A stretch of 64,000 bases of DNA from Halichondria panicea (lineage: Eukaryota > Porifera > Demospongiae > Suberitida > Halichondriidae). Positions 3,001 through 60,000 of this stretch are shown here, piece by piece; within the stretch, counting starts at the first letter, position 1, and each line of letters starts with the position of its first letter. The notes beneath the pieces are model-generated. The model did no database searches. It was not told where the DNA came from and worked only from the letters and a program-made list of their open reading frames with translations. The position numbers and the translations under genes are program-made. The stretch spans positions 7,426,315 to 7,490,314 of the forward strand of contig NC_087382.1 of NCBI RefSeq assembly GCF_963675165.1. Reading direction: 5' to 3'.

Positions 3001-6000
3001 GACAAATCACTGGCTTGTGAGAGAGTAATATTCTCTGCTATTAGGGAGTCTGGCCGAACAGTCTTTGAAAATCGCAAAATCAAGGTTCCAGAATTGAGAT
3101 CTAACTCCTGGAAGTCGACAAGCTGAGGAGGATTGGGATCTATTACCAGAATGTTTACTTGAAGTGCAGTGTTGGAAACAATGTTGTTACGGCTCATGTC
3201 TTGAACAAAGTCTTCTGTGAAAGACAAGTAACAGTCAGTTTTATTTAGACAGAGAGTGTTAGAGAATAGTTTGTTAACACTTTGTTGATCGATGGAGACT
3301 TCTACAACATTTGAGTCAACACCGTTGCTTGATCCTGAAAGTGAAACACTTCTTAAAGGATTCATCGAAGCATCTTGTATGACAAGGGCAGACACATTCA
3401 GTGTGTCTCTTACATTCACAGTCTCACTAAATATCAGTGTGAGGTTACCAGTGTCGACATTGATGATGAACTGTAGAAGCATTGGCTGTGATGTATCATT
3501 TAGCACTTGAGTGGCCATGAATGGCATTGAAAGTAAGATAGGAATGATTGATACTCCACTGATATCTCTGATGCCATCTGAATCGATTGATATGTAAGTA
3601 TTGGCTTCACTTGTACCAAGATTTCTGAACGCTTTGACTTCATTAAGATCCGAATTCGATAGTGTGATTGTCAGAGTTGTGAAGTTGTCTGATGAGATGA
3701 TCATGCTGTCGATGGTAACTGATTGGACACCACTTGGCTCGTTGACGAGGACAAATGATCTTGAATTCACAGAGAAGACGTCTATAACCTCATCAAATGA
3801 CAATGTCAAAACTCCATTGTTCAGATTTAAACTGAATGCAGTAAGTACAGGACCAGTTGTGTCAGCAATAATCATATTCACTTCGGTGATAGTGGACTCC
3901 AATGCATTTCCAGCCAGGTCTTGAACAGAATCAGGTTGTACTAGCAAGTAAGTGTTGTCTTGTTGAGTGGCTAAGTCTGAATAGAATTTCAAGTTATTCA
4001 GGTCTGTTTGATCGAGGGTGATTGTAACAAGTGATGAATCGGCCAATGTACTGACTGTAGAAGCAGGAGTGATATCTACAGTTGGTCCAGCAGTTACATT
4101 CGATGAAAGTGTGAAACCCTCTACGTCTATTGTAGAAATTATTACTGGTTCTGAGAATTGGATCACGAGCGTACCGTTATTGAGATCAAGATCAAAGCTC
4201 AATAGAGAAGGTGCGTTTCTATCCGCAGTAACAGATGATGCAGGTATTGGATCAGTGAGCTGCTCAAACATGATATTGGTGAAGTCGAGCACAAACATAT
4301 GAGGGAGCAAAATGAATGTGTCTGATGGAGATGTTCCGAGTGCTTGATTGAGCTTAATCTGGTCACCATCTTCCAGAGACAAAGGTAAAATGATCTCACG
4401 TGCATCCATGGTGGGCACAGGAGTATTCTGGAGGGTGTAGTTAAGAGTTCTAGCTACAGAACTTCCAAGTAGAGTGATTTGATTAGGCATCAGGGTTTGA
4501 GCTCGAACAATTTCACTGAAAGTGAGAATTAGTGAAGAAGAATTCAGATCCAAAGTAAAATTGACCAGTTCTGGTGGTGTACTGTCTGTAATGAAAACTG
4601 AAGTAGGTCGTGCTGCAGATTCAGGTATAGGGACAAGAGAATTTTCAGAGGTATCATCAATGGCAGAATCATACACTACAAGGAAAGTAGTGAAATCATT
4701 CTCAGCCAGGCCAGGCAGCTCCTTTATATTGTCCAAGTCTGCAGCATCAATCTGCACAGCTATGGTATTGTTACTTGCCGGCAGATTCAATAGAGAAACG
4801 AATGTATAGCGTACTCTGGGGATTCGATCACTGTCGATCAGCTCAAACCTGCTGATATTGATGCTTGCTCCATTGACAACCTCTGAGAAATTAAGGAATA
4901 GCAGTCCTGCATTGAGATCTAAGCCAAAGGACAGAAGTGTGGGTAAAGTTTCATCACCAGCTACTCTACTTGCAGGCAAGGCAAAGGAGGCATTGATAGG
5001 TATGAGCTGGTTGTTAACCAGGTCTCTTGCAGTTGTATCCATAGCAGCTAAAAATGTATTTTCATTTGAAGTTCCCAGATCACCAAGAAGTTGAATAGCA
5101 TCGAAGTCGGCACTGGATAGTCTAAGCTCAAAGGAGGTGAAAGATAGTTGCGTCACAGTACCACCTGTTAGAGTTACGTTGACTGCATCAGAAATATGCG
5201 AATTCTGTAGAGTTATACCACTGGGATTTATACTTGTGGTATTCATTGCTTCTGAAAAGTTGAGAATGAGGAGCCCTATGTTCAGATCAAAGCTGAAAGA
5301 ATTCAGCTCAGGCGCAATTAAATCTGGAATGAATACATCAACCATTTCAATTGCTGATTCAAGACCATTGTTCGCCAAATCCAGAATGGCATCGCGAGCA
5401 ATATATATGTAGGTGTTGTTGATATTAGTTGCTAGATCTGGCTGTGCCTTGATTTCATTTACATCAGATTGTAGCAATTGAATTGTGATTGCTTTAGCAT
5501 CCTGAGATCTTGTCACCTGTCCACCCGATAAAGTTATGCGATCAGAAACTAGAGATGTTAGAGAGCTCTGAAGAGCTATGTTGTCAATGAGGAGAGTACT
5601 TGAATTGAGTACATCATCAAACGTGAGCGAAAGTGTTTCTGCAGTGAGATCAAGACTGGAGCTTACAAGAATAATTCCTTGATTATCAGGAATGTACACA
5701 TTTACGGGAAGAGCATTTCCGTTAGTGATAGCAATTACATCACGGCCAGCATAATCATTGAAAGCATCAGCGCTCATTATGAGGAAAGTGTTGTTAGTTT
5801 CAGTAGCCAATCCACTGATTTCACTGACTCCAACTCTGTCCTGAGACGAAAGCAGTATGGTCACTGTCTGAGAATCTCCGCCAGTTGTGAATGAGTCAGT
5901 TAGTGTGTACGACAAACCAGGAGCAGATTCACTGCCACTCTGAATAGAGATTGCCCTAGGATAGATAGAACTGACATCTATTAAGTCGTCAAAGGTTATA

Positions 6001-9000
6001 TTCAGGAGACCAATATTCATGTCCAATGTGAATGCTGTAGCTATAGCTTGCGATTCGTCAATTTGCACAGATAACACAATATCCAACTGATCAGAATTAC
6101 TGTTCATAGCCACATCCATTAGAGCACCAGCATTGATCGACAGGTTAGCTTCAACTCTTTCATGGTCCAAGAAGGTGAACATTTTGAGCAACAGTGCATC
6201 CTCAGATGATAGCTGAAATAATATCTGTGTTGTTATCTCTGTGAGAGAAATTAGCATTCCACCAGACAGTGTAACCACTGCTGATGAATTTGAAGAAGAG
6301 CTGATCGATACTTGTGAGGTGTTGAATGTAGTGGAAAGGACAGGCTCATCAAAGAAGATAAAGAGCACATCACGCTGAAGGTCCAACAACGCAGATGTAA
6401 TTTGCGGACCTTGTTCATCAGGTACATACACAGAAAGAAGAGCATTGGAAGTAGAAATTGGAGACGTGGGATTTGGTGGGTGTGCCAAATCTTGAATCAA
6501 GGAAGAAGTTACAGACAAGAAAGTTGTTGTATCCATGTCAGCGAAAGGTGCTGCCTTTAGAGCATTGGCATCTTCTGTAGTCAGAGCAATTGTGATAACT
6601 CTTCCATTTTGGGAAGAGGACGATCCTCCTTGAAGTTGATACAGTAGAGAAGTGTTGGTTTCATTCTTACTAGCTTGAATGGTAATGGCAGTAACTTGCA
6701 GTGTAGATACTTCCACAGGTTCATCAAAAGTGAGAAGTAGTTGATTGCTGTTCAGATCAAGAGTGAAAACATTCACTTGGGCTGGAATATTGTCTTCAAT
6801 GAGGTCAGTAACTATTCTTCCTTGTTCTAAATTACTGGCATTGGATAGTGGGTTGCCGGCTAGATCAGTTATGAAGGAAGGCATTACCCAAGCATAGCAA
6901 TTACTTCGGAAAGAACAGAGATATTGTTGACCCTTTATGATGTTCACATCATTATCACTGAGGATGAAACTAATTTCTCTTCCACTTGTAGAAAGTGAGA
7001 TTGTTGCATTGGGAGTATAGTTTGAGAAAGGATCAGCAAACAAAGATTGGAGGCGGAATCCAGATACATCAAAATTGGTAATGTTCACTGGCTCACTGAA
7101 GCGAAGTCTGATTTCCATACTGTTGAGATTGAGCTCTACAAACTCTACCAAAACAGGTAGATTCTTGTCAGGGATTATTTCTGCTACTGGAAGAGCAATG
7201 CCATCTTGTCTTGGAATCAGAGAATTTCCACTAGTATCTTGGACGGTATCATTGGTATATCTGATGAAACACATAGCAGGTGATGTACACAACTCGGGTT
7301 GTGCACGCAAAAAGTCGAAGTCACTGCTGTTGAGAATGACCAGCAGGACACTGTTTCCTTCCAGAGTGAATTCTGCTGAACTCAGTCTGAGTTCATTTGA
7401 GAATACAGATAGTCCATCTTGAATGACAATTTCACTGATCCTAAATGTTTCCAAGTTAATGGCCTTGCTAAAGGAGAAGCTAATCGTCCCTAAGTTGAGA
7501 TCTAGGGTGAAGGAACTTAGCCCTGGACTAATGTCATCTCTGCCGTATTCAGTTGCTCGTACAGCTTCATTTGGTGCAATGGCTTTTATACGCAATCCAT
7601 TAATACCGTACACTGTGTAGGATGGCATGGAGAGGTAGGTGGTGTTCAGCGAGTCAGCAAGTCCAGTAATAACTTGAAGATTGATAACATCAAATTGTGT
7701 AAGCTCAAGCAGAAGCGCATCGGAATCAACCTGAGTTAGTAGTGTACCACCGGTGAGTGTGTACACTAGAGCACTTGAAGGTGCAGACTGCAATGTGAGA
7801 AGAGTGGAATCGAATGTAGCCACACTCAATGCTTTACTGAAAGATAGAGATATTAGTGCCGGATCAAATTGGATAGTGAATGATACCAGCTCAGGTTCGT
7901 TTGTGTCTTGAATGATATTCCCCTGAACACCAGTAGCAATCTCGGCAAGTCTAATGGTGGCAAGATCCAGAACGAAACGGCTTTCAAGAGTGAGAAATGT
8001 TTGATCAGGAGATTCACCAATACCCAACATACGAATGTTGTCTTGCAGAGATTGATTGATGGAAATGGAGAGAATTGTGCTACTCTCAAGCGAATCTATC
8101 GGAGAGATTGATGGCAACCTTACATACGAAATATTTCGCTGTACAGAGTTTTGAAGAATAACTCTTTCAGGTGTTGCGGTGGAAGCATTTACAGACTCAC
8201 TAAATGTAAGGATGACCTGACCAGTATTATAGTCAAGTATCCAATCCACTAGTTCAGGAGGTGTGAAGTCACCAGTTATCGAGTTGATTCGCATAATTGG
8301 AGTAGTTTGCAATAAGAACCCAAACAGATCGATGAAAGAGTCTGAGAACATCTGTATAAAGGTAGTGTTGATAGCTTGGAGTAGTGGTAATCGGAAGAAA
8401 AGTTCATCCAAATCAGTTGAACTCAGAGCAATTTCCACATCAGGCCCGTTCATTGTGTTTGTGATCATGCTGCTTGTTAGGTTATAGGCTACTGCCACAG
8501 AGGTATTGGTTGACAGTTGAATTAAGGAGACATCAGTTGAGCTCACATCTATTTGCACTGGTTCACTGAAGTGTAGTACTATTGTGAACGGATATGTTGC
8601 CAGCCCACTGCTCACAGCATCAAATGACTCGAGAATAGGTGGTGACATATCTCGAATGGGGGTACCGGCAATCATCAAGGAATCTACAGTGTTGATCGGA
8701 TTTCCAGCTATGTCAGCAACTGCGCCCATTGATACCATCAAGTAGCAATTGAATCTGTTGGTACACAAGTTGGAGTCTAGTTTTAGAGCATTGAGATCGT
8801 CTCTTGTCAGTTCAACTGTGGCGACAGAGCCATTCGTTGGCTGAGCAAAGCCACCACTAAGAGTAAGAACATTTATTGGAGGTGTAAGGTCACTGACCAG
8901 TGATATCAGGCTGTAATTGAACGAGTTGACATCCACAACTTCATCAAATGTTAGAGTTACGAGTCCTTGGTCAATATTTAATTCAAAGACAAACATGTTG

Positions 9001-12000
9001 GGAACTACGCCATCCGGATACACGAAGTTCACAGGGATGGCTTCACTGAAAGATTTGCCTGTTAGCAAGTTTCCTGCTCTGTCAGTCACTGATCCATTAG
9101 CAATGGCTAGGAAGGTGTTGGATGGCGAACCCAGGTCTGGAAGATACTTGACAAGATTAGAGTCTTCTTCAGTCAATTCAATAGTAATCACAGCACCCAT
9201 GGTATCAATCACGTTGCTAGTATCTCCATTAAGCGTCAGAAGAGAGGTGGGTAATCCATTGTTAGTGTTCAGCAGAGTTAGCCCGGAAACATTGAAAGTA
9301 GAAGATAGGACTGTTTCAGAGAAGGTAAGAATCAGATTAGCTCTAGTCCTGTTCAAGTCTAGTACAAAACCAATAAACTGTGGAGATGTTGTATCCTGAA
9401 TGTACTCCGATACTCTAATAGCGCTTCCATCAGGCAGTTCCAAAGCAGCAATGCCGTTGGTATCTTCAAAAGCTTCAATCTGATTTCTGAGATAAGTTGT
9501 TTCATTAGAAACTGCGAGGCCAGGGATATTTTTGATAATATTGAGATCGGATTCTGACAGAAAAATTGACATTTCCACACTGTTTTCAAGTGAATGAGTC
9601 CCCATTGTCAATTGATGCTGCTGGCTCAGAACAGAGAGCTGTCTACTCTGCACTATTAAACGGTGGATCATGAGCGTGTTGCCACGGATAGTCTCACTGA
9701 AAGTTATCACGAGTTCACCTGTATCAAGGTTGAATGAAAAGGAAGAAATCATGGGCGGAGTCAGGTCATCTCTGAGGCGGATAGCTTGGAGAGCTTCTGT
9801 GAACATTAGTCCTTCAATAGCATTTCCATTAAAATCTTCTGCTGCAGAGCTAAGTAGAGACAAATAGGTATCACTTTCATTTGTCCCCAGATTAAAGTCA
9901 GCTTTGATTTCATTCAAATCTTGTTCAACCAGGAAAATAGTGTAAATTAAATTGTTCATCGATGTTTCGAAAATACCACTTGAGATAGGAAATTGTCGGT
10001 TCGAATCGAAATTCAGGATATTCGAATCTTGAAGAGTAAAATCAGTCACGTTGAAGGTAGTGAAGTCAACTGCTTCTGAAAAACTAAGCAAAAGAACTCC
10101 TAGATTGATATCCAGTTCAAATCCTTCTAGACTTGGTCGCGTTGTGTCTGGAGTGAACATTTTTACAAGCTGTGTTGTACTTCTAACATTAAGATTGGCT
10201 GTATCAGCAATGAGTTCTGCTGTTATTGATACATACGTTGTGAGATTGGACGTTGCAATCAATCGGTTCGATTTGATAACATTAAGATCAGTTGAAGAGA
10301 TTTCAATCACTACTTCGTAGCCATCATTACTACTGGTGAAGCCATTTCTGAGCTGGTAAGTGGCATTGGGATTTCCCACTTCTCCAACAAGAAACAAGCG
10401 AGAAATGTCAAGAGACATTACATTGACAATGTCATCAAAGGTCAAAAATATTAAACCTGCATTCATATCCAGATCGAAAGATGTGAGGGACGGTGGTGTG
10501 GAGTCTTCAATGAAAGTAGTTAATTGTAGCGGAGGTGATGCAATGATGGAATTTTCTGCAGTATCTCGCAAGGTTGCATCAGCAAGTGTCAAGAAGCTAT
10601 TTGTTACTGAGGTACCAATGTCAGGGTTGAGTTTAATTGCTTGAAAGTCTTCATCGCTGATTCTTATACGAATCACTCTCTTATCAAATTCGTCAATGTA
10701 AGAAACTTGCTCGGCATCGACAGTCAGTGTGAAGTTAGATCCACTATTTGCTCTCTGCTGTAGAGTAATTCCATCACGAACTACAATGGCACTCAATGGT
10801 TCATCAGCACTAATTTCTAGTATCCCTTGATTGATATCAAGCAAGCTAAATTGAATATTACTGATACTTGGTGGAGTAACATCCGGGAAGAAATTTCTCG
10901 CAGGAATTGGCTCAGCAGGGGGATTAATAAAGTTGTGACTATTCGTATTCATCACGCCACTCGCTCCAACGTCACGAATAAATGTATCATTATAGGTGAT
11001 GTATGTATTGGAAGGTTCTGTTGCAAGGTCAAGTCGTGCTTTGATGGCAACTACATCAATGCCTTGTAGTAATGTCTCCACAACTGTAGATGGATTAAGA
11101 GTGAGTCTATTGATATTAATTAGTGTGTATCTGGTAGTCTCATTCAAGTCACTCACAAATGTGAGCGCAGTTGGAACAAAATTTGCGGAGTCAATAATCT
11201 CATCAAATGTGAAAGACAGTTCAAGAGTTTCCATACTTAGGCTATAGGACTGAAGCTCTGGAGGAGTAGAATCGGCAATAATATCCAAAGGAACATCTGT
11301 ATTTAAGAATGTGCCAGTAGCTTCAACAGGTAATACCGAGTTGCCTTCAATGTCCATAACCAAGTTGGAAGTGAATCTGAGTGCACAATTGATTGTTTGC
11401 CGGCAGAATTGTGAGCTGGCTTTTACTCGGTTCAGATCTTCCAATGAAAGTCGTATAGTTACCATGCTACTATCATTTGATATTACACTTCCTCCAGTCA
11501 GTGAAAATCCAATTGCACCAACCTCGAAAGATTGAGCCAGAGTGAGCTGAGTAAGGTTGAAAGACTCAGCTCTGACTTCCTCAGTAAAACTTAGCACAAT
11601 ATCTCCCGTATTGAAATCAAATAGTTCAAATTGCAATAGCTCTGGACGAACCATGTCCAGTGAGAGGCTTAAAGCTCGCCTTGCTCCGCCATCAGTTATA
11701 GGATCAACTCTTGCGCCAGTTGTATCATTGGCAAATGCAGCATCAAATGTAAAGTAGCAATTTGTTAGCGAAATACAGAATCCACTGTCAACTAGTATAA
11801 TGTAGTCTTCCAAGCTGAGGTCCACTACAACAGAGCTGAAGGTTGATAGTGTAAAAGTGGAGGATAGGAATTGGAATCTATCTTCTGTACTTGGCCTCAA
11901 GGCATTACTCTGCAAACCGCCCCTGAGGATGTCTATACTAGCTGGATCTAGAGCTTCGTTGAACTCAAATACTACTCTTCTTGCCATTAAATCAACAACG

Positions 12001-15000
12001 AATGATCGCAGGAAAGGATTCTCTGTGTCAGGTGTGTATAAAGATGAAACAGTGACTGAAGGTATTACTGGATTGCCGGACATATCGCTCACAGCACCTG
12101 AAGTGATGAAGATGATGGTATTGTTTTGTTTTGTGGCAAGCTGAGGGTTCACTTTGACAGAATTCAAATCAAAGTCAGTAAGGAATACTTGCAGCCTAGA
12201 TGAAGCATTGAGCATAGGCGTTGCTAAGCTCAAGGAAACAGAGCTGTTGTCAACCTCATTCACAAAGGTAATTTCTGAAGGTGACACACTCTGCAGATCA
12301 ACCGTTTCACTGAAATCCAAAATGAGACTGCCGGTATTGAGATCAAATTGCACATCGACAAGCTCAGGTGGTATTTCATCAGGGATGTATAATGTAGCAG
12401 GACCCACTGTTATAGGGTCAGACACAAGGTTTCCAGAAGCATCAGCAATGACACCAGGTAAAATCTGCACATATGAACTTGTTAAGCTCGTAAAGAGACC
12501 TCTGTTGGCAACAATGTCATTAAAGTCTTCAATTCCGAAGTCAATGATAACCTGGTCACCATCAACTAAACTAGCAGGAGAGCTTGCATCTGTTAGTGGT
12601 AAAGCCTGACCTCCATCTGCATTCTGCAGTACAATGTTGGTAACATCAAGTGTGGAGATACTCACAGACTCGCTAAAGGTAAGATAAATCTGACTGACGT
12701 TCAGGTTTACTGAGAATGATACAAGCGTTGGTGGTGCTCTATCGGGGATGTATACTGCTGCTTGAGTTGCTTCAGCAGTTTCAACATATGCATTGTTGTA
12801 GTAATCAGAAAATGAGCCCATGCTGATATTGATAAATGTAGTGTTCATGGAAGTAGCTAGATCGCTTCTCAAGACTAATCCATCAATGTCTTGAATATCG
12901 AGATTGACCGTGATAATATCAAGATCAATAGGGGATACAGACGAGCTCTGGAGTGTGTAAAACGAATCAGTAAATGTAGAGTTTGCTTGCAGTGTGATGC
13001 CAAGTAACATTACTGAGCTGGAGTTGACAACTTCATCGAATGTTAGTAAGATTCTGGAAGCAGTCAAATCCAAAGTGAAAGATAGCAGTACTGGACCAGT
13101 TACATCCATCACAAAGTTATTAGGCTGTTCAGCTAAAGAAGATGGGAGAGCAATGATGTTGATACCTGCTGCATCTACAAAAGCGGTGCTCTCATAGAAG
13201 AGATAAGTGGTGTTGATGTTGGTTGCAACGTTCCTATCAAGAGCCAAACCAAATAGGTCATCAGAGCAAAGGCGCAGGATCCTGGTATTTAAACTCTCTT
13301 CTTCAAAAGAGCCACAGTTGAAAGTGTACACTTCATCTATCGGTGCAGTATCAGATGATTGGATGAACAGTGATGTTGGATCAAACCTATCCAAGAGTAT
13401 AACTTCACTAAAAGTGAACCTTAGCAGCCTATCGTCTAGATCTAACTCATAGGAGAGCAAACTAGGAGGAGTAACATCTGCTGTGAAGTTTGTTACTATA
13501 AGGGCAGATTCTGAATCAATAACAAATGCAGAATTCCAAGCAGTATCAAACAAAGTGTTGGAGTTAACAGTAATATAGGTCTTGCTTCTTCTTGTAGCAA
13601 GTGATGGGATACTCTGAAGAGATAGCAAGTCTGTCATTGAAAGGTTTATTCGAATACTGCTGAGGGAAGTAGACACCCCATTGCTATCAACGAGAGTGTA
13701 TGAGCCGTTACTAGGAGAAAGAGTGATATTTACAGCATCCTGCAGTGTTATGCCAGTGACATCAAAGGATGTAAAGTTTACAGTCTCTGCAAAGTACAAA
13801 TCCACAATTCCACTGTTCATGTCAAGGTCAAATCGCAAAAGTTCAGGAGACGTCATATCAGACACGAATATTGTGACATTCTCAGATTGCATTGCTACAG
13901 TTGCAAAAACAGGGTTGCTAGCGAGATCAGTTATCGTTGTGTTTGTAATACCGAGGAATGTGTCTAGTGGAGATGTAGCCAAATCAGGTAAAGACTTAAT
14001 AATATTGAGATCTTCTGCAAGCAAAGTGATAATAGCTGTAGAGCCATCACGAGAGCGTACAATAGAACCTCCAGTTAAGGTAAAATTAGTGCCACTGTCA
14101 TCTTCATTGGAATGTAATGTTATGGAATTGTAAGAGATCGAGCTCACATTGATAGCCTCAGTGAAATTGAGGTTCAAGATTCCCATGTCCAAGTCAAGAT
14201 CGAAGGTATCAAGTGTTGGCCTGGTTTGGTCAGGAATGAAAGTGTCAACTTGCAAAGCTTTACCGTCTGTTATAGCTAGACCATCATTTCCGCTTGTGTC
14301 GTCAATCACAGAAGCTCTCATGGTGAGGTAAGTATTGCCCATCTCAGTAGCTAGACCTGGTAGAGAATTGATATTCACCATGTCATCCAGTGATAGTGCC
14401 ACCACTATTTCTGCCCCATTCATACTATTCGTAGTAGATTCTGCAGAGAGTTCATATGATGGACCGTCGCTAAGGTATAGAGAGGACTGTATCACGATTC
14501 CAGTTGCATCGAAAGTATTTGCAGCCGCTATTCCAGAGAAAGTGAAAACAAGCACTCCAGTCTCCATATTGAATGAATATCGGGACAAAGAAAGAATGGC
14601 TCCCCTAGGTGTGTAACCACTTGCTTGAGTATTATTAATGGTTGTGATGAGTTGATTTCCAAATAAATCTGAAATTGATAGAGGGTCCACTCTCAAGTAG
14701 GTTGTTTCTAAAGAGATGGCAAGTGATGCATCGACTTCAATCAAATCTCCATTATCAGCACTGAGTGTGAAAATAGTAGGCACAAATGATGAAGTGTCAC
14801 CGAGCATTGCTGTTGTTAAATTACTGAGTCGAAATTTGCAGCTAGCTTCAGAGCTATTAGAACAAAGTTGGAAGCCGCTGTATACTACATTGCCAACATT
14901 TGTTGGTTCATCGAAAATCAGTGAAAGTTCTAGAGTCTGTAGGATGAGTAAGAATGAATGAAATTGGGGTGGAACTACGTCGGCAAGGTAAGAGTTCACT

Positions 15001-18000
15001 CTTATTACTGATGCAGATGATGGAACACCAGCATTATCAGTAATGGTGCCGGGAGCTAGTGAGATATAAGTATTATTTTCTGTAGTTCCAACACCGATAA
15101 TCTTAAGCATATTCACATCAAGCGGGGTGAGAGCGATCTGAATCACTGCTGATGAAACTTGAGTGAAAGTGCCCTCTGTTAGGGTGTAGTTTACATTGGC
15201 ATTGGTGAGGAGGTCTTGGAAGGTAATGCCAGTTACTAGCAGAGAGTCAGCTAGTACTGGTTCATCAAACATCAAGGTGAGTGTTTCATTGCTGAGATCA
15301 AAGTCAAAGCTCGAGAGTAAAGGAGAAATGATATCAGGATGGAAAATGTCCACAATACGTCCAGGAATTGCTTCATCGATTGGAGTTAGCAGATTTCCTG
15401 AAATATCTGCAATTGTCTCAGCGAAAGCAGTAATAAAACAGTTCCCTCTTTGAGTACAAATGTGTAAGCTGTCCCTAATGTTGAATAGATCGATTGGGTC
15501 TACGATGAACGAGAAGATATGGCTATTCTGTATGCTAGTGCTGATGCTTCCTGTCAGATTGTACTCTTGCGTGGGTCTGTCATGGAGACTTTGCAGCATG
15601 ATAAATTCTGGGTGGAATGAAGTAACATCTATTGTCTCAGAGAATTCCAAGACAATCTCACCACTGGACACATTGAAAGAAACAAATTGAACCAATTCAG
15701 GACTGGTGACATCGTTAGTGAAACTTCCCGGTTCATCTGGCCCAAAGGCAAACACTCCATGTCCAACCATGTCCATAGTGGTGTTTTCAGGGAAGCTGAG
15801 GAAACAGTCATTGCTCACATTGGATGTGCACAACGGAAGGAATTTGATTCCGTTCGAATCGGTTGAACTTAGTTCGATCTCCAGGACAGGACTATTTCCA
15901 GAAACAACTCGACTGTCAGTTAAACTGTAGTTGACTGCAGAAGAAACATTTGATTCCTGCAGGAATATATTCTGGATTATGAGTGTCGATGCTCGCATAG
16001 TTTCATCAAAGCTCAAGCTAATTATTCCAGTGTTGAAGTCAAAGTCATAGGAGAGGAGGCTAGGTCTAATGTCATCACCAATGAAACTTTCAGCAGGTTC
16101 AGCTCGTACAGATGTAACTGGGAAAAGACGATTGTTGTTCATGTCGTACACAGCATCAGAGGCTATGGTGAGGTAAGTTGATGATATTCCAGTAGCCAAT
16201 GAAGTCATTCTACGTATCTCATTTGCATCGTCAGAGCTCAACTCAAATACAATAACTGAATCGGGCACAATCGTAACCACAGTGCCAGCTGTGAGCTGTA
16301 CAGATTCAGATTGGCCACTCAAGACCTGTTCACTTTGATAACTGATTAGTTCTATCGTGAAGGTACTAACATTTACAGTTTCAGAGAACCTCAGTGTGAC
16401 GCGGTTGGTTGTAAGATCAAGAGAATGTCCTTCCAATGTAGGTCTGATATTGTCGGGCTCAAACTCTGCTGAAAATATAGCGTTATCAGTAGGTATAAGC
16501 ACACTCGATATTCCAGCAAAATCGATGACCATAGATGTAGCAGATGAAATGTATGTTGTCGCCTGTGAAACAGCAAGGTTGGTCATTGCCTTGACAGCAT
16601 TGGAGTCATTCCTGCTCAAGGAAATCATAATTATTCCATCAGAGAGTAGTGAAACTTCACCACCAGATAAAGTGTACATTGAAGTACTACCATTGGCAGA
16701 GTTCTGCAGTGTGATAGCCTGTAGATTAAATGATGTGAAGTTCACAGGCTCGGAGAAAGTAAGAAGAAGGATACCGTTATTTCCTGCTGTTAAATCCAAA
16801 ATGAAGCTTGTTAAACTAGGCGGAACAAAGTCAGCGGCAATACTGAGAGCCATTACAGCATTGGAAGCAGGTATTTCATTATTAGTATTCCCGTAAATGT
16901 CTTGAATGGAGCCCATTGGAAGAGTTAGGAAGGTGGTCGATGGAAATTGTCCAGTGGGTGGATTGAGTAAGATCATTTCAGCATCTAGAACATCAATGGT
17001 CAATATGACTTGTGGTGATAAGCCTGAAGTAACACTAGCTGTTAGTAGCGTGTAAGGAGAACCAGTACTGTCATTTTGGCTGGACTGAAGAGTTAGAACA
17101 CTTGAATCGAGGGATGTCCCATTAACCGTCTCAGAGAAGTAGAGTATCATTTCAAGTCCAGTGCCAACAGTATTTAGATCAAATCCCAACAGAACTGGTG
17201 AAGACAAGTCAGGCACAGTTAATTGAGGTGCTAAAGAGTTGACAGCAATAACCATGTTGTTGGCAGAGTCTTGCAGAGAAGCAGCTGTGAATGAAAGGTA
17301 TACATCACTGCTTACTTCATCCTGTAGAGACACTTTAAGCTGATTCAGATCATCATTGTCAAGAACAATTTGTATCTCAGTACCATCAGTGGTGTTGACG
17401 AATCCAGCATCACTTAGCGGTATTACAAGAGGTGGAATCAATATACGGCTGTTGATAGTGAACTCAGTGACTTGAATGGTATCAACAAGAACGACTTCGG
17501 AGAATGTGAGGAGAAGTGATCCAGAGTCAACATCAAGTGTGTAGTTAAGTAGCTGAGGAGGACTGAGATCAGGAATAATATTCGAAACCTGTAGAGCAAT
17601 ATTTGGAAAGATTGAAAGCACATCATTTCCACTCATGTCCATTATAGAGCCACCTTCTAGGCTCAGGAAAGTGTTGTCATTTGTAGTGCCTATCAGAGTG
17701 GCCAGCTGGAAGAAAGTTATGTCGGCAGGAGACAACTTCAATGTCAGTATGCTTGAATAATCTTCAACAACTGAGAATCCATCAGGATTCAGCTGGCGGG
17801 GTGGAGTCATTACTTGTTGCAAAGCATTTTGAGTGCTCTGAATAGTGATACCAGAAACATCAAAGGAGCTGGCATTGACAGTTTCAGTGAATGTTAGCAA
17901 GAAACTACCATCATTCAGATTGAAATCAAAGCTCTGAAGTTCTGGTCCGTTGAAATCAGGTGTGAAGGTGGAAACTTGGATGGCATTCTCACCTAGTAGT

Positions 18001-48000: not shown

Positions 48001-51000
48001 ATAAAGCTTGCAACAAAGCTGGATGTTGTAACCAACTCATTTAGTGTCAGTACTAGTTCTCCAGCGTTCATATTCAGAGTGAATTGAATAACGATTGGTT
48101 GTGAGTTATCTGAGATAAAAGTACTAGCTTGTACAGTATCGTTTCCTGGAGCACTATTACCAGCTAAATCCATTACCCAGTTTTCTCTTGCTGTGAGGTA
48201 GGTGTCTAAGTTGCTAGTAGCAATTGAGCGATTCGATACTATTTCATCAAACATCTCATCAGTGAGTTTTAGAGAAATGGTGCTACCATCACTGAGCCTA
48301 GTAGCTACTCCACCATCAATAGGTATTGTTACTACTGGAGACAAGGAGTCATCACTCAAAAGTATTAGGAATGTTGGCTGAAAAGAGGCAACAGAAACAA
48401 GATCGGAAAATGAGAAATCCAAAGTACCAATGTCGAGATCTAATTCATAGCTAAGCAGTACAGGTGGTTGCAAATCAGGTATAACTTCAAACGCTTGCAA
48501 GGCCTTGCCATCAGTAACCGCCAAAACATCAACACCAAAAACATCATCAATTCCAAAGGCCTGCATTGTAACATATGTATTAGCTGTTGTGGTAGCAAGG
48601 TTAGGAATGTCACGAATTCGAATATGATCTTGACGAGATAGCTCTACCACAATTTGATAGCCATTGACACTGTTTGTTTGACTAGAATTTGTCAAAAATA
48701 CAATTTCTCCCAGAATAGCACTTTCTGATGATTGAATGGATATTGCCATGGCATCAAAAGACAGCGAATCAACCACATCGGAGAACGTCAAATACAAAAG
48801 TCCAGGCTGTATATCAAAAGACACATTTAGGAGCAGTGGTCTCGACATGTCTGGTAAAAACATAGTTGCTGCAATCGGCCCGACACGCTCATTTGGAACA
48901 CCTGCAGTATCAAATACGGTACCAGCATTAACAATAATGAATGTATTCGTTTCGTTTGTAGCAAAATTATCTTCCAGTTTGATCGTTCTCAAGTCATTCA
49001 TATTCAAAGAAATTTGAGGCACTACTGATGCTTCTACCACTGATTGGATAACATTTCCAGGTGTTATTGGTACGACAATACTAGGAGTTGATACTGCAGA
49101 CTGTAGAGTGAGACCACTGATATTTAATGTGTTCAGCATGACAGGCTCATCAAAGGTCAAAAACAAGGCGTCTCCGTCAACATCTATAGTAAAACCGGTC
49201 AAAACAGGAGGAGTAATATCACTGAAAAAAATCGAGACATTCAAGGCAGCAGTAGTGGGTATTGCATCAACCGGGTTGTTATTAGTATCCAATACAGTAC
49301 CAAAAGCGATTGACAAGTAGGTGTTGTTGCTGTTTGAGGCAAACTCTCTCAACTTCAGAGCATTGAGATCACCTGGCAGAAGAGATACATTCACGAATCT
49401 GTCTCCATTCTCAGCTAACGTTACACCACCAGAAAGTTGGTAGTATTCGTTAGGAGAAGTTACACTCGCTGCTCCCTGTACTGTAATACCTGCGTAGTCT
49501 ATCTCTGCTCCTCTTACAGGTTCCGAAAACACCAACGAGAGAATTCCACTATCCAAATCTAAATCAAATCCGTCAACAGTTGGATTGATATTGTCCATTA
49601 CTAAATCCGAAACAATCAAACTAGGATCTCCAGAAGCAACAGCATTGACATTTCCAACCAAGTCCTCAATAAAACCAGATTCCATACGAACATAACAATT
49701 ACCTCGTCCTGTGCACAGAATAGGATCTTCTTGAATATTAAAAAGATCTACTAACGAGAACTGCACTGTAATTGTTGTCCCTGTAGAATTAACATTCGAA
49801 ACAAACCCAGATATTAATTGATAACTTGTTTCTTCAGGTGAAAGCTGAAACAAGCTTTGAAGCGTAAGCTGGGACACAGATAGAGAATTCACATCGACAG
49901 GCTCATCAAACTGAAGTTGAAGTGTCCTAGTGGTGAAATCAAAGACACTAAACTGAACTAGCACTGGCCCTGTTTGATCAGGTTCAACAGTAATAGGAAG
50001 TGGATTATCCTGGCTTCTAGGGAGAGCAGGTATTCCTAGTGTGTCTGAAGCCACTTGTACTGTGTAGGACACAGCACAATCATCCATTGACAGCCCAGAG
50101 CACAGAGGAAGCGTTTTTATGGTGTTCAAGTCAGCAGTACTCAGCTCTATAAGAACACTTGAAGGGTCAGTATCAGAGGGAAGCATACTGTTAGCTGTAA
50201 CTAGGGTATAGGAAGAATCGTTTGAATGTAGAGTGAGCTGATTAATCTGTATAGAAGTGATGTCTGGGGTTTCATCAAAATTCAAAACTAGTATACCATT
50301 ATTCAAATTCAAAGAAGCTGACAGAATTTCAGGAGCCTCATTGTCTGACTGGAACATGTTAACTCCAAGAGCATTACGCGGCCTGATCTCCTGTACAAAA
50401 TTTCCAGCCATGTCCATAATAAGCTCTGATGTAATCGACAGATAAGTAGCAGCTGAGTTGCTGAAAATATTTCCCAGAGCCTTGATAGCATTCTTATCAC
50501 TATCTTCAATAATCACATTAATCAGTCTACCATTTTCTGAGTTAGTTGTTCCACCAGTCAGGCTGTACGAATTTGCTGGGTAGGGGGCCATGGCGTTTTG
50601 GAAAGTGATTTGCCTGAAATCAATACTAGATGCATTCACCACTTCATCAAAACTCAGAGATAGCAGTCGTGTGTTTGCATTTAGATCAAAGGAGTCTAGT
50701 TGAGGGCTGGTAGTATCGTCAATATAAGTTGTCGCTTGCAGAGCATCTCCACTAAGCACTTCCTCAGCACAGTTGTTGGCAATATCACAAATTAGTTTTG
50801 CTGCAAACCTGATGTATGTTGAAATATTAGCGGTAGCCAACAATGGATTGAGTTTGATATTGTCAACATTGAGAGCCTCCAAATCCAGGAAAATAACCGA
50901 ATCACTGAGAGTTACAACACGACTAGGCAAAAGCAGAGTTGAAATTGCTGAGGAAGGTGCGGTTTGGAGGGTGAGAGAGGATGTATTCAAGGTGCTTCTT

Positions 51001-54000
51001 CTCACTGCCTCATTGAAAGTAAGAATGAATGCTCCATTGTCAAGATCAAATGTGTATCCACTCACTATTGGAGGGAATAGGTCAGCATTATAGGTAGTGG
51101 CAACAAAACTACTGACTGCAGTTAATCCGATTCCTGATGTGTCCAGTACTGCATCGGCAGCAACCACAAGGACTGTCATGCTCAAGGATCTAGCAATGTT
51201 GATATTATTGCGGATTCTGATAAGATCATTTTCACTGACATTCACTGTAACTACAATTAATGAGTCTTGCTGAATTGTTCCACTTGCTAGACTGAGAGTC
51301 GTAAAACCAACAACATCTCTCAAACTGAAACTTGTAACCTGCAGAGAAGTAGCAATAACCGGTTCACTAAAAGTCAAAATCAATTGAAGAGGCTCTTCGA
51401 TCAGCCTAAACTCAAAACCGACAAGCTCTGGTGGAGTTACGTCCAGAACCAACATTGAAACAGGTTCAGCATTCTCAGGTAGAGTGGCATCAAGCAAATT
51501 TCCACCGACATCCACAGTTGAGTTAGCTACAATTGAGATGAAAATATTTGCCATTGTTGTGGCTATAAGTGGCTCATCTTTGAGGAGATTTAGGTCATCA
51601 AAACTCAGGTCAATCTCAACGAAAGGGTGCAGACCAGTTGCTAAAATGGTGCCACCACTCAGAGTAAAATTTACTAGAGCACCTGACATTTCACTGTGCA
51701 GTGTAACAGAGGTTGGATCTAGAACTCCACCTGTTTGAACAGCTTCTGAAAAGTACAACGTCAAAACACCCGTATTCATATCAAGATCAAACGAAGACAG
51801 AGTCGGACTAACAGCATCACCAACAAACAACGAAACTTGCAGAGAGTTGTCAGTAGGAATTCTCCTCAGAGACTGGCCAGCAGTGTCCATCAGAGCACCA
51901 GTTGCAACTGAAAGATAGGTATTTCCACGTGCTGTGACAAAACCTGAAATCTGCTTAATTACGTCCAAATCTTGACCACGAATGAAGAGACATACAATAG
52001 GACCGATGGTAGAATTGGTTGTGACCTCCATGAGGTTAAGGGTATCTACAGGAAAGGCTGGGGAACTCTGGATTGTGAATGCATCGGGAACAAGAGTTGC
52101 TGGGTCCACAGTTTCTGATAGTGTGAGAGTGATGATCCCTAGTCCCAAATCGAAATTGTAAGAGTCTATGACTGGGTCTGTTGTATCAGGAATAAAATTG
52201 TTGGCAAGTAAAGCCTGACTTGTGCCATACGGTATACCAGGGTTCCCACTGGGATCTTCATATGTTCCTGCTAATATTGACAGGAATGTATTTCCAGGAA
52301 GAGAGGCCAAATCTGTCAAAGCCTTAATCTCATTAAGGTCACTAGTGGAAATTAAAACATCAATGATGTTGCCACCCATTGCGGTAGTATTTCCACTGGT
52401 AAGCAAATACTCTGTTGCAGGATTAGTTTGAGAACTTCTGAGAACAAAGCCGGTGTAGTTGATAGAGCTAATTTGGATTGACTCAGAGAAAGTGATGTCG
52501 ATTATGCCCCTGTTGAGATCAAATGAGTACATGGAGACAGTTGGAGGGACCACATCATCAGAAAAGTCTGAGGCTCTCAGTGCATTATCAGCATCAATCT
52601 CAACAATGGGATTGCTGTTGAGATCTTGGAAGGCTTCAGATGGAATGACAATGTAAGTATTGTTAACAGAGGTTCCAAGAGTCAGTAGACTTTTTATATT
52701 GTTGAGGTCTGCTACTGAAGGAAAGAATTCAAATATCTGACGATTTGGGGTGCTTACTAGTTGTCCAGCCATGATATTGTATGAAAATGTCATCGTATCA
52801 CTAGCATTAGCAACATTCTGCAGAGTGATTTGGTTTGGTGCAAAATTCACAGTATCTACAGCTTCAGTGAAGCTCAATACTAGTACACCACCACCTAAAT
52901 CAAAGGTGAACCGCTCTAGTATGGGATTTGTGGTATCGAATATATATTCATTGGTCCTGAATGCACCAGTGTTAGATCTAGCAATCACTTCCACACCAGC
53001 AACATCTGTAATTGCATTTGAGGCCATCACAATATATGCATTTTCTGGACTTGAGGCAAGTTGAGTGTTGGCTTTGATTTCATTCAAATCGTTATCAGTA
53101 AGGACTATGGTGATATTGTATCCATTTTCAGTAGTCACATTGGCAGCATCAGTTAGAGAAAAAGAAACTGTTGGAATACTGCTGTTGCCTTGGATACTCA
53201 AAAGATTGACTCGGAATGAGGACGCAAGCATGATGTCATTGAATGAGAGAACCAAGACACCTAAATTGAGGTCTAGGGATGAGAAAATGAGATTTGGGGG
53301 AGTGATATCTCTCACATACGAATTTACTGGCAGAGAATTGTTACTAAATCGAGGTTGAACAGGGTTGCCTGCTAAATCATTGATAGAGCCAGAATCCACA
53401 AACAAGAAACTGTCAGTGTCACTGGTTCCAAGATTTGTAAGAAGCTTAAGGTTTCTAAAATCATCATCACTGATAGCTATGTCTACTGTTGTTAGGTCAT
53501 TGCTAAAACTGCTGTAGCTAACAGTTGCAGATAATATTGTCAGCATTGTTCCTTGATCAATCTCAGACTGAAGGTGAAATCCAGTAGAGTCAAATGTGTT
53601 GATATCAATGGGCTCGTTAAAGATAACCTGAAGTGTGCCAGAATCTAGATCCAAAATGGAAAAGTCTGTGATGGAAGGACTTGTAACATCACCTAAAAAT
53701 ATGGTAACCTGAAGAGCACTTATACCATTAGCAAGAACATTCACTGAGTTACCTAATTCTGAGTTATCAGCAATTAAGTCGGATGTGATAGTTACATACG
53801 TTGTGGTGTTATCAGTTGCGAGTGTACTTCTTGCCTTTATTTGAATAAGATCTGCATCACTCAAATTTGTTCTGAGTATTGTCCCAATAACTCTACCGGG
53901 AAGAGTTGCTTCCACAATTGAGTAAGAACTAGTTGACAAGAAGGCATTTTGAAAGGTAATTTGACTGGCTTGGAAACCGTCTTGAACAACTGGCTCATCA

Positions 54001-57000
54001 AATGTTAACACTAGTTCACCAGTGTTAAGGTCAAAATCATAACTCACCAGATTAGGTGAAGTTGTGTCGTCTGTGAAGTTACCTACAATTTCTGCTAGTG
54101 GAAAAACTAATGGTTCTATTTGCCGTAGAACCACTTCTGCAACCATATTTCCAGCCATATCTGACAGAAAATTTGTAGTAAATTGGATAAAACATTGAAG
54201 AGGCTGTCCACATATAGCAGAGTTCATTTTGATGCCATTCAGATCTGTAATAGACAGTTGGATTTCAATCATAGGTCCGTTCTCGCTGAAAATGGTACCT
54301 TCTGATAGTGAATAAGGTGGTGTGGTCAATCTAGGTAGTGTATACCATTGAGCTAAAGTAACTTCTGAAACTTGCACTGATGACACATTCACTGTTTCGT
54401 CGAAGGACACAATGAGTCGTCCAGTATTGAGGTCAAACGCTGAGAAACCAACAAGAGTGGGTGGCGTGGTATCCGGTGTAAATGTGCTGACAGGTCTACC
54501 TTCAAAAAATTGAATGATTTCCACAGGATTTCCAGCAATGTCAGTGATGGTAACAGCTTGAAGACTACGTGGGAAGTATAGATAGCAGGTGATATTGTCT
54601 CGGCAGACTTGGATCCTCTTGATCTCATTCAACTCATCGTTAGTAAATTCAATTCGAAGATCACGCAAACTGTTTGGAGCATAATCAACATTGCTGGAAA
54701 ACGCACTGAAATCCTCCACATCAGTTGTGTCAACCACTTCTTCTGAGAGAACAAGCTCACCAAGTTGAAACGACGATAATATTACTGCCTCATCGAAACC
54801 CAAAGTCATAACTCCCACATTCAGGTCAAAATCAAATGTAGACAACGTGGGTGTTGTAATGTCTAGAATAACTTCACTCGCTTGCAGTGTACGCTCCACA
54901 CCTGGGTTACCAGCAGCATCAAGGATAGCTCCGGCTTCCAAAGCTAGATAGGTGTCACTTTGGTTGTTGCCTAAGTTTCGGAATTTAATCAAGTCCAGAT
55001 CCGTACCAGCCAGAGTTATGACAGTTCTGATATCATTGTTAGTAGGAAAAGTTCCATTAGTCAATGTGACACTCATTTGGGGGTTAGCTCTAGCATCCTG
55101 AATCGCAAACAATGAAATTTGAATGGAGGAACCATCAATTGTTTCACCAAAAGTGAGGAATAGCTCTCCGGTGTTCAAATCAAGTGTGAAATCTTCAATG
55201 ATGGGACCAATTGTATCTGGCAGAAGCTCCTCAGCTCTGAGTGCATTGGAAGATGGAATGGCACGTACTGGATTACTTGAAGTATCTTGTACACCAGTGG
55301 AAGTGACAACAAGGTAAGTGTCATTTCTGTCCGTAGCTAGATCACTGAAACTCTTGATTATGTTCAAGTCTTCCACGCCAATTCTGATCTGTATAACATC
55401 ACTACTATCACTTATCACTAGGCTATTAGTGGTGAGAGTGAAGCTGACTAGATTAGCACCAGGAATTTCGGCATTTTGGATGTTTTGCAGCGTGTATGAA
55501 GTCACTAGCAGAGTATCAGCATTAATAGCTTCATTGAAAAACAGCCTTAATGTTCCAAGAGCAAAATCGAGAATGAAACGCTCAATTATGGGACCAGAAG
55601 TGTCTCCAACAAAAGAAGATGGTGGGATTCCAATCTCATTACCAATAATAGGGTTTCCAAGCATGTCAAAAACTGATGCATTGGTGAAGATAAGGAAGGT
55701 ATTGTCAAGTGACGAAGCTAGGCTGGTGTTGAGCTTTATGGCATTGATGTCCTCTCTGGCTAAGTATATCTCAAAGTCTCTAGAATTTGTAGTTACTGAA
55801 GAGGCAACAAGTGACACAGTTTGAGTTGCATTTGCAGGAAAGGCAGTGTTTTGGATCGTAAACAAGCTTAAGTCGAGAGTGTTTGCATCAACAATCTCGG
55901 AGAAATTCAGCACAAGCAAGCCTACGTCAACATCCAGACTATACATCAGGAGCTCTGGAGGTGTAAAATCAAACACAAACTCTCCTACTTGCATTCCTAG
56001 TGGCCCCACTTCAATGACAGGGATTCCAGCCATGTCAGTCACAAATGAAGCAGGGAAGGTGATGTATGTGTCATCTCTAGAGGTAACAAGATTTCGAATA
56101 CCCTTGATTCCATTCAGGTCGGTATCTGAGAACATCACCGTAGCTAGTGGAGATGTGAATGATTCATCAAAGATGCCATCACTAAGAACGTAGGTAAGCA
56201 ATGGAGAGAATTCACGGTTCTGAATGGTTAGATCACTTAATATAAGGCTTTGACTATCAACAACTTCAGAGAATGTGAATGTAATAGAGCCTGCACTGAG
56301 ATCCACGGTGTAGTTGAGTAGCACTGGACTGACAGTATCACCAATGAATACATCTGCTCGAATACCATTATCAATATCACGTTCCGTAGCGGGGTTGAAA
56401 CTAACATCTTGAACAAGGTTGGAACTGAAAGACAGGTACGAGTTTAATACTGAGCTAGCAACATTGCGTATTGCTTTAAGGGCTGTGAGGTCATCGCCAG
56501 AAAAGGTGACTAACACTTCTACAGCAGTGACAAACTCAAAAGCAGTTTCACTGCTCAAAGTATATGAATCGGCTCTCAACGTAGCATTTCTTTCACCTTG
56601 GAAAGTTAGCGCTTTAACATTGAAAAAATTTCGAGAATAGGTTTCCGAAAAAGTCAAGGATATTTCACCAGAGTTCAGATCGAGAGTGAACGTGTCCAAG
56701 TCTACAGTAGTAGTGTCATTGATCACATCTGCAGCAGGTAGAGCATTAGCAAAATCAAAACCAGGATCTAATGGATTGCTGAAAAGATCGTTAACGGCTC
56801 CCATTGGTAAAACTAGGAATGTGTCACTAACAGATGTACCAATCGATAGGTTGAAGTTGAGAGTATTGAGATCATCTGGAACTAGAGTAATTACAAGTGT
56901 CCTTCCATCAATAGTCCTGGTTACTGTGCCTCCAGTGAGACTTATCACAGCAGTAGAGGCAGTATCAAAAACCTGCTCATTCTGGACAGAAATACTGGTT

Positions 57001-60000
57001 GTAGTCAATGTCTCTGCATACATGAAATCAGTGAATGTTAGAAGCAGTTCACCATTATCACGATCAAATATAAAAGATGTGAGCTGGGGAGACGCAAAAT
57101 CGATGGTATAATTTAAGACCTGGATGGCTTTGCCGTCAGTAATAGCAAGGACGTCAATACCATCAACGTCATCAATAGCAAAAGCCTGCATTGTCAGCCA
57201 TGTTGTATCTATGCTCCTTGCAAGACCAAACATGTCCTTCATCCCAAGGAAGTCAACGTCACTGAATTGGACAAGGACTTCATACCCGTTAGGACTATCT
57301 GTGGTGGAGTTTGTTAGCGTGTAATGGAGGCCATTGGTCGCCCTGAGACTGTTCTGAATTCTAAATGCAGTTGGATCAAATGTTATCATGGTCATGACAT
57401 CATCGAACGTGAGATTCATTACGCCGAGGTTCATATCAAGAGCAAAAGATATTAGTTGTGGTCTAGTTGCATCAGGGACAAATGAAGAAGCTGGTATATT
57501 CAGCATGTCAGGAATGGCAATCTCCGACATGTCAACAATGGCTCCACTCTGCACTGATAGGTAAGTGGTAGTTGAGTTGATTGCAAGCTGTGAGCTTAGT
57601 TTAATAGCAGTGACATCATCTTCAGCAAGCATGATGATGATGATCTTGACTCCATCATCTTGGGTGACCACTTGACCTCCAGTTAGTGTGACTGAGCTCA
57701 CAGGAATAGGTTGCTCTCCAGAATTGATGTTGAAGAATGTCAAATTCTGTAGAGTCGAAGTGCGAACAGGTTCATTGAAAGTAAGCAGAAGACGATCTTC
57801 ATTGAAGTCCAGCTGAAATTCATTAATTAAAGGTGGTGTAGTGTCATTAACAACGTTCGTAGCCTGGACGGCTGCAGTGCTATCTTCAGGGCGTATCGGT
57901 AAGGGCTCATGTGCCAAGTCACTTACAAAGTTTTCATCAAAGAATACAAAAGTGGTACTCCTATCCATGGCGAGATTGTTGTTTCCTTTGATAGCACATA
58001 GATCATCATCATTGAATACAAGTGTGATGATATCACCATTTGGAGGCATCACAACACCACCAGTTAGTGTGTACACCTCTACCGATGGAACTGGGGAGCC
58101 TGAGGTTGACTGAATAGTCAGTGACGTGGGCTTCATTGATGTGTGAGATACTGGCTCACTGAATATGAAGGAAATCGTTCCCTGGTTCAAATCTAAGTCG
58201 TAAGCATCTAAATAAGGCCGTTCCTCGTCGAGAGTAAATGTTGTTGCTATGAATCCTGGGAAAACCTCAAGCACTTCGTTTAAAGGATTTCTACCTTCAG
58301 CATTGTCTAATATTGCACCTTGTAGCAGTCTAACATAGCAGGTGTACTTCCGTGTGCACACAAAGGGATCCAACTTGATTCTTTCAACGTCTGCTTGAGA
58401 TAAATTAAAAGACACAGTTGCAGCATTCTCCATGGTGATCAATGTTGCGTCAGTGAGAGTAAGGTTGCTTATTGGCTCAGAGAAGAGTGTTTGGAAGACA
58501 ACTCTTGAAGTATCAAATGAAGATGGTCGCACCGGTTCATCAAATCTCAAAGTAAAGTACCCGTCACGAAGATTGAACTCGACAAACTCCACTAAGTTAG
58601 GTGCATTGACATCGGGGGTGACGACAGTTGCCTGCATAGCCATTTCAGTTGATAACTCATCATTGAAAATATCATCGAAATTGGTCACTGCCCCAGCATC
58701 GTAAGAGATAAAGCAATTGCTCGTATTTGAACAAAACTCTTCTTCTCTTTTCAGAGTAATATTGTCAGTTTCTGTAAGAGTAACTCTGAGTTGAAAATAG
58801 TGTGTCCAGATTCCGTTAACCGTTTGCGGCCAATATCTTTGAGTTGTTGCAGTGAGACTATGCGAGAATACAGCTGATGAATTTGCTGATTGCAGCGTGA
58901 ACAGGGAAAGATTCACAGTTGACACAGAATTCCTTATTGCTTCATTAAATGTGAGAAAAAGGTAGCCTTCATCTAAATCAAGACTAAACTCTTCTACGAA
59001 TGGTGGTGAAGTGTCAGGGACAAAGTGTCTAACTTCAAGTGCATCAATATTAGGCACACGGACAAGAAAATTGCTGTTCATATCTCTGATTGCAAAGTTC
59101 AAGATGGCCAAGAAGGTGGTGTCATTTGTTATAGCAAGCTGGTTTCTTCTTTGAATTTCAGCAAGATCATCTTTACGTAACTCAATTACAACAACAGGAC
59201 TATCGGTAGATTGCAAGGGAGAGCTGACTAAATCATGAAGTCTGACTAAAGAATTAGGCTCTGATACACGATTCTGTATTTCGACTTGGTTTTGATCAAA
59301 GGTACTGTGGTCTACAGCCTCATCAAATTCAAGAGTGAGTATCCCAATATTCATATCCAGATCAAAAGCAATTACCATTGGTTGAGTTGTATCCTCCGTG
59401 AAGCCTATAGCCTCTCTTGCAGTATTTGAGAGAATTTCAAAAGCAAGATTCTCAGCTGAATCTTGAACAATGCCTCTTGGAAAAGATATGTAGGTATTTG
59501 TAGCCATAGTACCAAGCTGAGTGTTGACTTTGATAGCATTGAGCTCATCGATACTGATTTCAATATCAATAATGGACACATTTGCGGTTGTAACAATGAT
59601 ACTGTTTGAAATGCTTTGGTTGTTGGATGTGGAGCCTGATGAACTCTGAAGGAGAATTGAAGAGATATTGAGAGTGGAAACTACTACATCCTCATTGAAA
59701 GTGAAGGAAATCACTCCAATGTTCATATCCAAAGAGAAGCTATCCAGATTTGGGGGATTTAGATCCCCAGAGATGTTACGAGCCTGAACAGCATTTGCAG
59801 AATCAACAAGACTAGTTGGTAGGTCAACCATGTCAAAAGCAGCATTTGCTTCAGCTCTGAGGAAACTTGAATTCACTACTGAGCCTAGAGGATACCTGAT
59901 CTTGATTGCTTCAAGGTCCGTAGAGGTAAGAAGAATTTCTATTTCAGCGCTATCGATAAGTGTGACTGTGCCGCCAGTTAGGGTATATTCATTAGTTGAT

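What the first reader, a model, noticed from the sequence alone, without database searches (positions are those of the whole stretch)
5703..57149. Higher-order repeat: every 23 modules (about 8.57 kb) the pattern recurs, six full times
The marker motif copies are spaced 8544, 8592, 8571, 8511, 8571 and 8625 bp, all multiples of three, and I count exactly 23 modules in each interval. This hierarchical protein architecture (module, then 23-mer, then array) implies amplification of a segment of about 2,857 residues as a unit. No known filament protein I recall has this exact layout (titin has super-repeats of 7 and 11).
Basis: seen in the sequence. Interest (0 to 1): 0.93.

Follow-up and report, generated by a model that had tools for sequence, protein, structure and literature searches.

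The report
Giant rod protein with 23-domain super-repeat
The window is the middle of one enormous, probably secreted animal (perhaps sponge) protein of about 41,600 amino acids, read almost entirely from a single stretch of DNA, built of 335 similar beads in a fixed 23-bead pattern repeated 14 times, and it ends in half a bead whose other half seems to begin the giant protein of the neighbouring gene.

The parts
1..63508 (-). Part inside the window of the giant second exon of gene A (whole exon C6:7365156-7489822, stop included); first exon lies outside at C6:7491870-7491933
   Evidence: open frame; exon limits read by eye, reading frame checked
54873..63508 (-). super-repeat 1, units A001-A023
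   Evidence: unit tiling; block lengths
46254..54872 (-). super-repeat 2, units A024-A046
37701..46253 (-). super-repeat 3, units A047-A069
29178..37700 (-). super-repeat 4, units A070-A092
20634..29177 (-). super-repeat 5, units A093-A115
12039..20633 (-). super-repeat 6, units A116-A138
3507..12038 (-). super-repeat 7, units A139-A161 (super-repeats 8-14 and the tail A323-A335 lie left of the window)
54078..54872 (-). example of a paired Cys node, phases 1-2 (units A024, A025)
58239..59024 (-). example of a paired Cys node, phases 13-14 (units A013, A014)
23208..23573 (-). unit A108, whose only two Cys sit at the two places that are left over in A's last half-unit and B's first half-unit

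Best explanation
Genes A and B of this animal (inferred: a sponge) encode two giant secreted rods of the same about 124-aa Ig-like, SbsC-type domain. A is 14 super-repeats of 23 domains plus a tail of about 12.5; each 23-mer is divided 12 + 11 by pairs of Cys-bearing domains. The 23-mer arose by ancient amplification, and selection on position has since kept the register, so that special domains (the Cys pairs, the phase-17 domain) recur at fixed distances along an extracellular filament and serve as evenly spaced binding or branching sites. A and B come from an old fission in the middle of a domain: the half-domain at A's C-terminus and the half-domain at B's N-terminus fold together, sealed in this lineage by a disulfide, and join A to B head-to-tail into a chain of about 462 domains (about 57,600 residues, near 2 micrometres at a recalled 4 nm per domain). 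Shown: open frames, unit tiling, 23 register, Cys pattern, half-units shared with relatives, a confident fold prediction. Inferred: organism, secretion, the A-B joint, the disulfide, the role of the register.
Confidence: 0.52

Rival explanations
1. Plain relic: the 23-mer is only the trace of ancient segmental amplification. The Cys pairs and the phase-17 domain are inherited, the register itself does nothing.
For: Same-phase similarity is weak (0.286-0.299 against 0.264) and most best hits are elsewhere (237 of 335). B has another period and C none, so the domain works without a 23 register.
Against: Similarity does not fall with distance. At under 30% identity the Cys pairs are still in place in 56 of 56 units, and no unit has been lost or gained inside the register of A over about 322 units.
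Confidence: 0.25
2. A and B do not join each other. The half-units bind some third protein, pair with themselves, or are disordered ends left by the fission.
For: No direct evidence of contact; the Cys is missing in 10 of 18 A-type ends and in P0019.
Against: The two halves complement each other almost exactly. Half-units are about as conserved as the same part of whole neighbours. A108 shows both Cys positions within one unit.
Confidence: 0.25
3. A and B are parts of one product after all, joined by trans-splicing or by an intron that I missed.
For: In paralog C an intron lies, by eye, at the same place of a unit.
Against: A and B lie on opposite strands; no GT at A's stop; B's frame carries its own Met and signal-peptide-like start, as do P0018 and P0019.
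Confidence: 0.03
4. Artefact of assembly or of alignment.
For: Long repeat arrays are often misassembled (general knowledge).
Against: Copies are too different for misjoining: TRF finds no tandem repeat in the window DNA. 124 kb without a stop. Offsets 22 and 24 are at background in the same alignment. Fragments of other assemblies are collinear.
Confidence: 0.01

Closest known systems
Titin A-band super-repeats (recalled: patterns of 7 and 11 Ig/FnIII domains)
   Same: A giant tandem of Ig-like domains with a higher-order register and special domains at fixed places.
   Different: Another domain (no I-set or fn3 found in two stretches), 23 = 12 + 11, apparently secreted, nearly all in one exon.
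SbsC S-layer Ig-like domains / Pfam Big_5 / CopC-like fold
   Different: Sequence identity 14%; Pfam scores below cut-off; arrays of hundreds in an animal.
Giant prokaryotic and protist proteins, PKZILLA-1 (4.7 MDa in PMC12194139, one passage seen)
   Same: Size class: the A frame is 4.48 MDa.
   Different: PKZILLA is an enzyme; A is a tiling of one structural domain.
Chaperone-usher pili and other donor-strand systems (recalled)
   Same: An incomplete Ig-like domain completed by strands of another subunit.
   Different: Here about half a domain on each side, once per chain, between two giant animal proteins; proposed, not tested.
Choanoflagellate and sponge flagellar vane (PMC9671500 and PMC7755389, passages seen)
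   Same: Thin extracellular filaments of unknown make-up with regular nodes.
   Different: No localisation of A or B; a family member in choanoflagellate UC4 (P0115) is not collinear with A or B.

Membership tests
Titin-like sarcomeric filament | Ig I-set and fn3 domains | tested here: not met
   Pfam-A on two 2,838-aa stretches of A, E up to 1: neither listed; only part of A was scanned
Titin-like sarcomeric filament | super-repeat register of domains | tested here: met
   23-unit register, though not 7 or 11
Titin-like sarcomeric filament | cytoplasmic, in muscle | not testable with these tools
   signal-peptide-like first exon read by eye speaks against it
Big_5 (PF13205, bacterial Ig-like) | score over the family's cut-off | tested here: not met
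   12.6 bits, cut-off 23.6, in one of two stretches
SbsC-type Ig-like fold | same arrangement of the domain | tested here: met
Cadherin | cadherin domains | tested here: not met
   not listed by Pfam-A for the two stretches of A
Sponge aggregation factor (recalled: Calx-beta domains) | Calx-beta domains | tested here: inconclusive
   absent from the two scanned stretches of A, B not scanned; present at the end of paralog C (30.5 bits, cut-off 27)
Split-domain (donor-strand-like) joint | two chains each bearing a complementary part of one domain | tested here: met
   profile columns 1-57 and 60-121; shared by 18 and 2 database proteins
Split-domain (donor-strand-like) joint | the two parts bind | not tested
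   no complex was modelled or assayed
Flagellar vane filament | located in the vane | not testable with these tools
   composition unknown in the passages of PMC9671500

The most novel reading that the evidence does not exclude
A and B are the filament protein of the flagellar vane (or collar mesh) shared by sponge choanocytes and choanoflagellates: a two-gene chain of about 462 domains joined through a split domain, whose 23-domain register (about 96 nm at 4.2 nm per domain, a recalled figure, the same as one axonemal repeat) and paired Cys nodes every 11-12 domains (about 48 nm) set the geometry of the mesh. The fit is only suggestive: vane filaments about 3.5 nm thick, first branching about 80 nm from the membrane, two sheets about 45 nm apart, make-up unknown (PMC9671500, passages), and a member of the domain family in choanoflagellate UC4 (P0115, 31% identity, not collinear).
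Probability: 0.12. Interest if true: 0.97.

Novelty: new variant of a known kind. Interest (0 to 1): 0.87.

Why it matters
It is a predicted 41,576-aa protein with about 41,555 residues from one exon of 124,667 bp; from recall this exceeds titin and comes near PKZILLA-1, and no exon of that size is known to me. It shows a protein array whose higher-order register stayed fixed while same-phase copies drifted below 30% identity, a natural test of what freezes long repeats. If the half-domains join, it is a new way for an animal to build one filament from two genes. It also gives a sequence handle on unknown giant extracellular filaments, matrix or flagellar vane.

Tried and rejected
TRF found no tandem repeat in the window DNA: copies are too diverged. 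Sequence search of the PDB with the unit profile: best E 0.092. Big_5 and CopC Pfam hits are below their cut-offs. Continuity of the 23 register through the A-B joint: not shown. Terminal half-unit more conserved than its neighbours: looked so at first, but against the first 50 aa of A334 and A333 it is the highest of three in 4 of 8 relatives, ties with A333 in one (P0033) and is lower than A334 in three (P0032, P0034, P0042). Searches for a description of such a protein showed none in their listings; the library lacks most subscription journals. Naming the organism by 18S rRNA failed: that search did not complete. Ten Wnt matches on C3, C12 and C6, which look like four genes, make it an animal. 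Sponge is inferred from recalled styles of the neighbour genes, the small genome and the TIG/Calx-beta end of C; no call shows it. Of seven sponge genomes whose abstracts were listed none has 131.5 Mb.

Full report
1. What the window is. Its minus strand is open from 63515 to the left edge; with the neighbouring stretches the frame runs 41,557 codons, C6:7365159-7489829. A separate search reports the same frame with no stop inside. Ten matches to the Wnt family, apparently four genes, show an animal. I infer a sponge from recalled gene styles of the neighbours; no call names it.

2. Gene models. Gene A: ATG at C6:7491933, a 64-nt first exon with a signal-peptide-like sequence, then one exon of 124,667 bp with the stop, 41,576 aa in all. 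Splice sites were read by eye; relative P0006 starts at the matching place. The frame weighs 4.48 MDa. Gene B starts 3,443 bp away on the other strand; its frame is uninterrupted, with a signal-peptide-like start, 16,085 aa. In the 244 kb around them no other unit scores better than E 0.028. A third locus, C (C6:2382770-2432094), has a signal-peptide-like exon, frames of 6,172 and 10,065 codons with 137 bp between, and a C-terminal TIG (two stretches) and Calx-beta domain. A small further match lies at C6:2249233-2249577 (open frame 1,060 aa). All matches listed (126; 150) are on C6; both lists are lower bounds.

4. The 23-unit period. Mean identity is 0.299 at offset 23 and 0.291, 0.291, 0.286, 0.288 at 46, 69, 92, 115, against 0.264 and 0.263 at 22 and 24. 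The excess is flat to 13 super-repeats (0.294) and gone at 14 (0.268, 13 pairs), because the last units are out of register. Best hits at multiples of 23: 98 of 335, shuffles at most 29. The tree of A001-A322 groups by phase (195 against shuffles of at least 261); mod 22, mod 24 and neighbourhood are no better than shuffled. A first tree of 170 window units agrees: 105 changes for mod 23, 145 for mod 22, 150 for mod 24, 125 for neighbourhood (no shuffles). In B the period is 18 (z 6.9). In C there is none (best z 1.2 over 123 units; a quicker alignment was used there).

5. Cysteines draw the frame of the 23-mer. In A001-A322 all 56 units at phases 1, 2, 13 and 14 have two or more Cys, against 16 of 266 others; a C-x(3-9)-C loop in residues 76-110 is in 54 of 56 against 4 of 266. 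Nodes of two neighbouring Cys units thus alternate at 12 and 11 units, which accounts for the minor peak at offsets 11 and 12. B has such pairs at units 25-26, 43-44, 61-62, 79-80 and 97-98, 18 apart, besides 1-2 and single Cys units at 11, 18, 87, 119, 122 and 127.

6. Age. Same-phase units are about 29% identical. Fragments from other assemblies follow A or B unit by unit, mostly at 45-60% (range 36-67%): P0006 with A001-A005, P0011 with A021-A024, P0005 with A084-A090, P0003 with A256-A261, P0010 with A332-A335, P0001 with B106-B111, P0002 with B119-B124; single units in some of these have a better hit elsewhere. Over the three searches 35 of 112 proteins with three or more units pass my collinearity rule; the other 77 do not, among them the choanoflagellate P0115. 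So the array is older than these splits and was not remodelled by exchange since.

7. The split domain. A stops in the middle of a unit (...YNLTGN, TAA CAAATAAA), after about column 57 of the profile, with one Cys at column 46. B begins after its signal-peptide-like start with columns 60-121, with the usual C-x-C pair and one extra Cys five residues before the unit end. Of 126 database proteins 18 end in this half-unit (P0042 runs five residues further, P0067 ends TLTES); 8, at 47-53% identity to A, have the Cys, 10, at 37-44%, do not; several of the 10 are close copies. P0029, which has the Cys but ends early, is not counted. For B's start there are two: P0018 (54%) with the extra Cys, P0019 (40%) without. 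That fits joint loss of both Cys, but the species cannot be matched. Inside A, unit A108 has its only two Cys at these two places. In C an intron lies, by eye, at the same point of a unit, so a fission at such an intron is a likely origin. B's last unit ends ...GCRQVDA with a lone extra Cys, and 9 of the 126 database proteins end alike, which suggests a further disulfide partner.

8. Mechanism proposed. Two secreted rods, made from divergent neighbouring genes, join through the split domain and form a filament on which special domains recur at fixed steps. What is shown and what inferred is marked in Best explanation. Where it works is open. C's TIG and Calx-beta, Ser-Gly runs (two in B, nine in C) and many N-glycosylation sequons (755 in A, 382 in B) fit extracellular matrix. 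A family member in choanoflagellate UC4 (P0115; UC4 described in PMC6792448, passages) and the vane data (PMC9671500, passages) allow the vane, at low probability; UC4 is a single-cell genome and contamination is possible.

9. Novelty. Giant tandem Ig-like rods with a super-repeat are a known kind (titin, recalled). New here are the domain family (no Pfam model over its cut-off in two stretches), the 12 + 11 register with Cys nodes, the exon of 124.7 kb and the split domain. No description appeared in the listings.

Noticed in passing
G000:C6:2382770-2432094 (L020-L025): Third giant gene of the family, C: signal-peptide-like exon, frames of 6,172 and 10,065 codons, C-terminal TIG and Calx-beta, no super-period, intron at the point of the unit where A ends.
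   Followed up: partly
G000:C6:2249233-2249577: A further unit-like match in an open frame of 1,060 aa.
   Followed up: no
gene B units B097 and B120 (C6:7495370-7543630, +); gene C: Ser-Gly runs and other inserts inside some units; possible glycosaminoglycan sites (recalled motif). B097 also has 10 Cys.
   Followed up: partly
C-terminus of B, C6 near 7543600: Lone Cys in a conserved GCRQV end, also in 9 database proteins: a possible second interchain disulfide.
   Followed up: partly
L014, C6:7355698-7362081 (-): Two near-identical neighbouring sets of exons that look like a glutamine-synthetase-like (lengsin-like) gene; name from recall.
   Followed up: no
L013, C6:7544269-7547144 (+) and L015, C6:7348353-7349258 (-): Kinase-like open frames beside B, followed by kelch-like ones, and another kinase-like frame left of A; names from recall.
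   Followed up: no
window 35113-35934, 41287-41979, 60571-61266 (+): Open frames of 232-274 codons on the strand opposite A; most likely shadow frames of the coding strand.
   Followed up: no
proteins P0012 and P0016: Distant relatives in which the repeat is followed by TNFR- or furin-like Cys-rich repeats.
   Followed up: no
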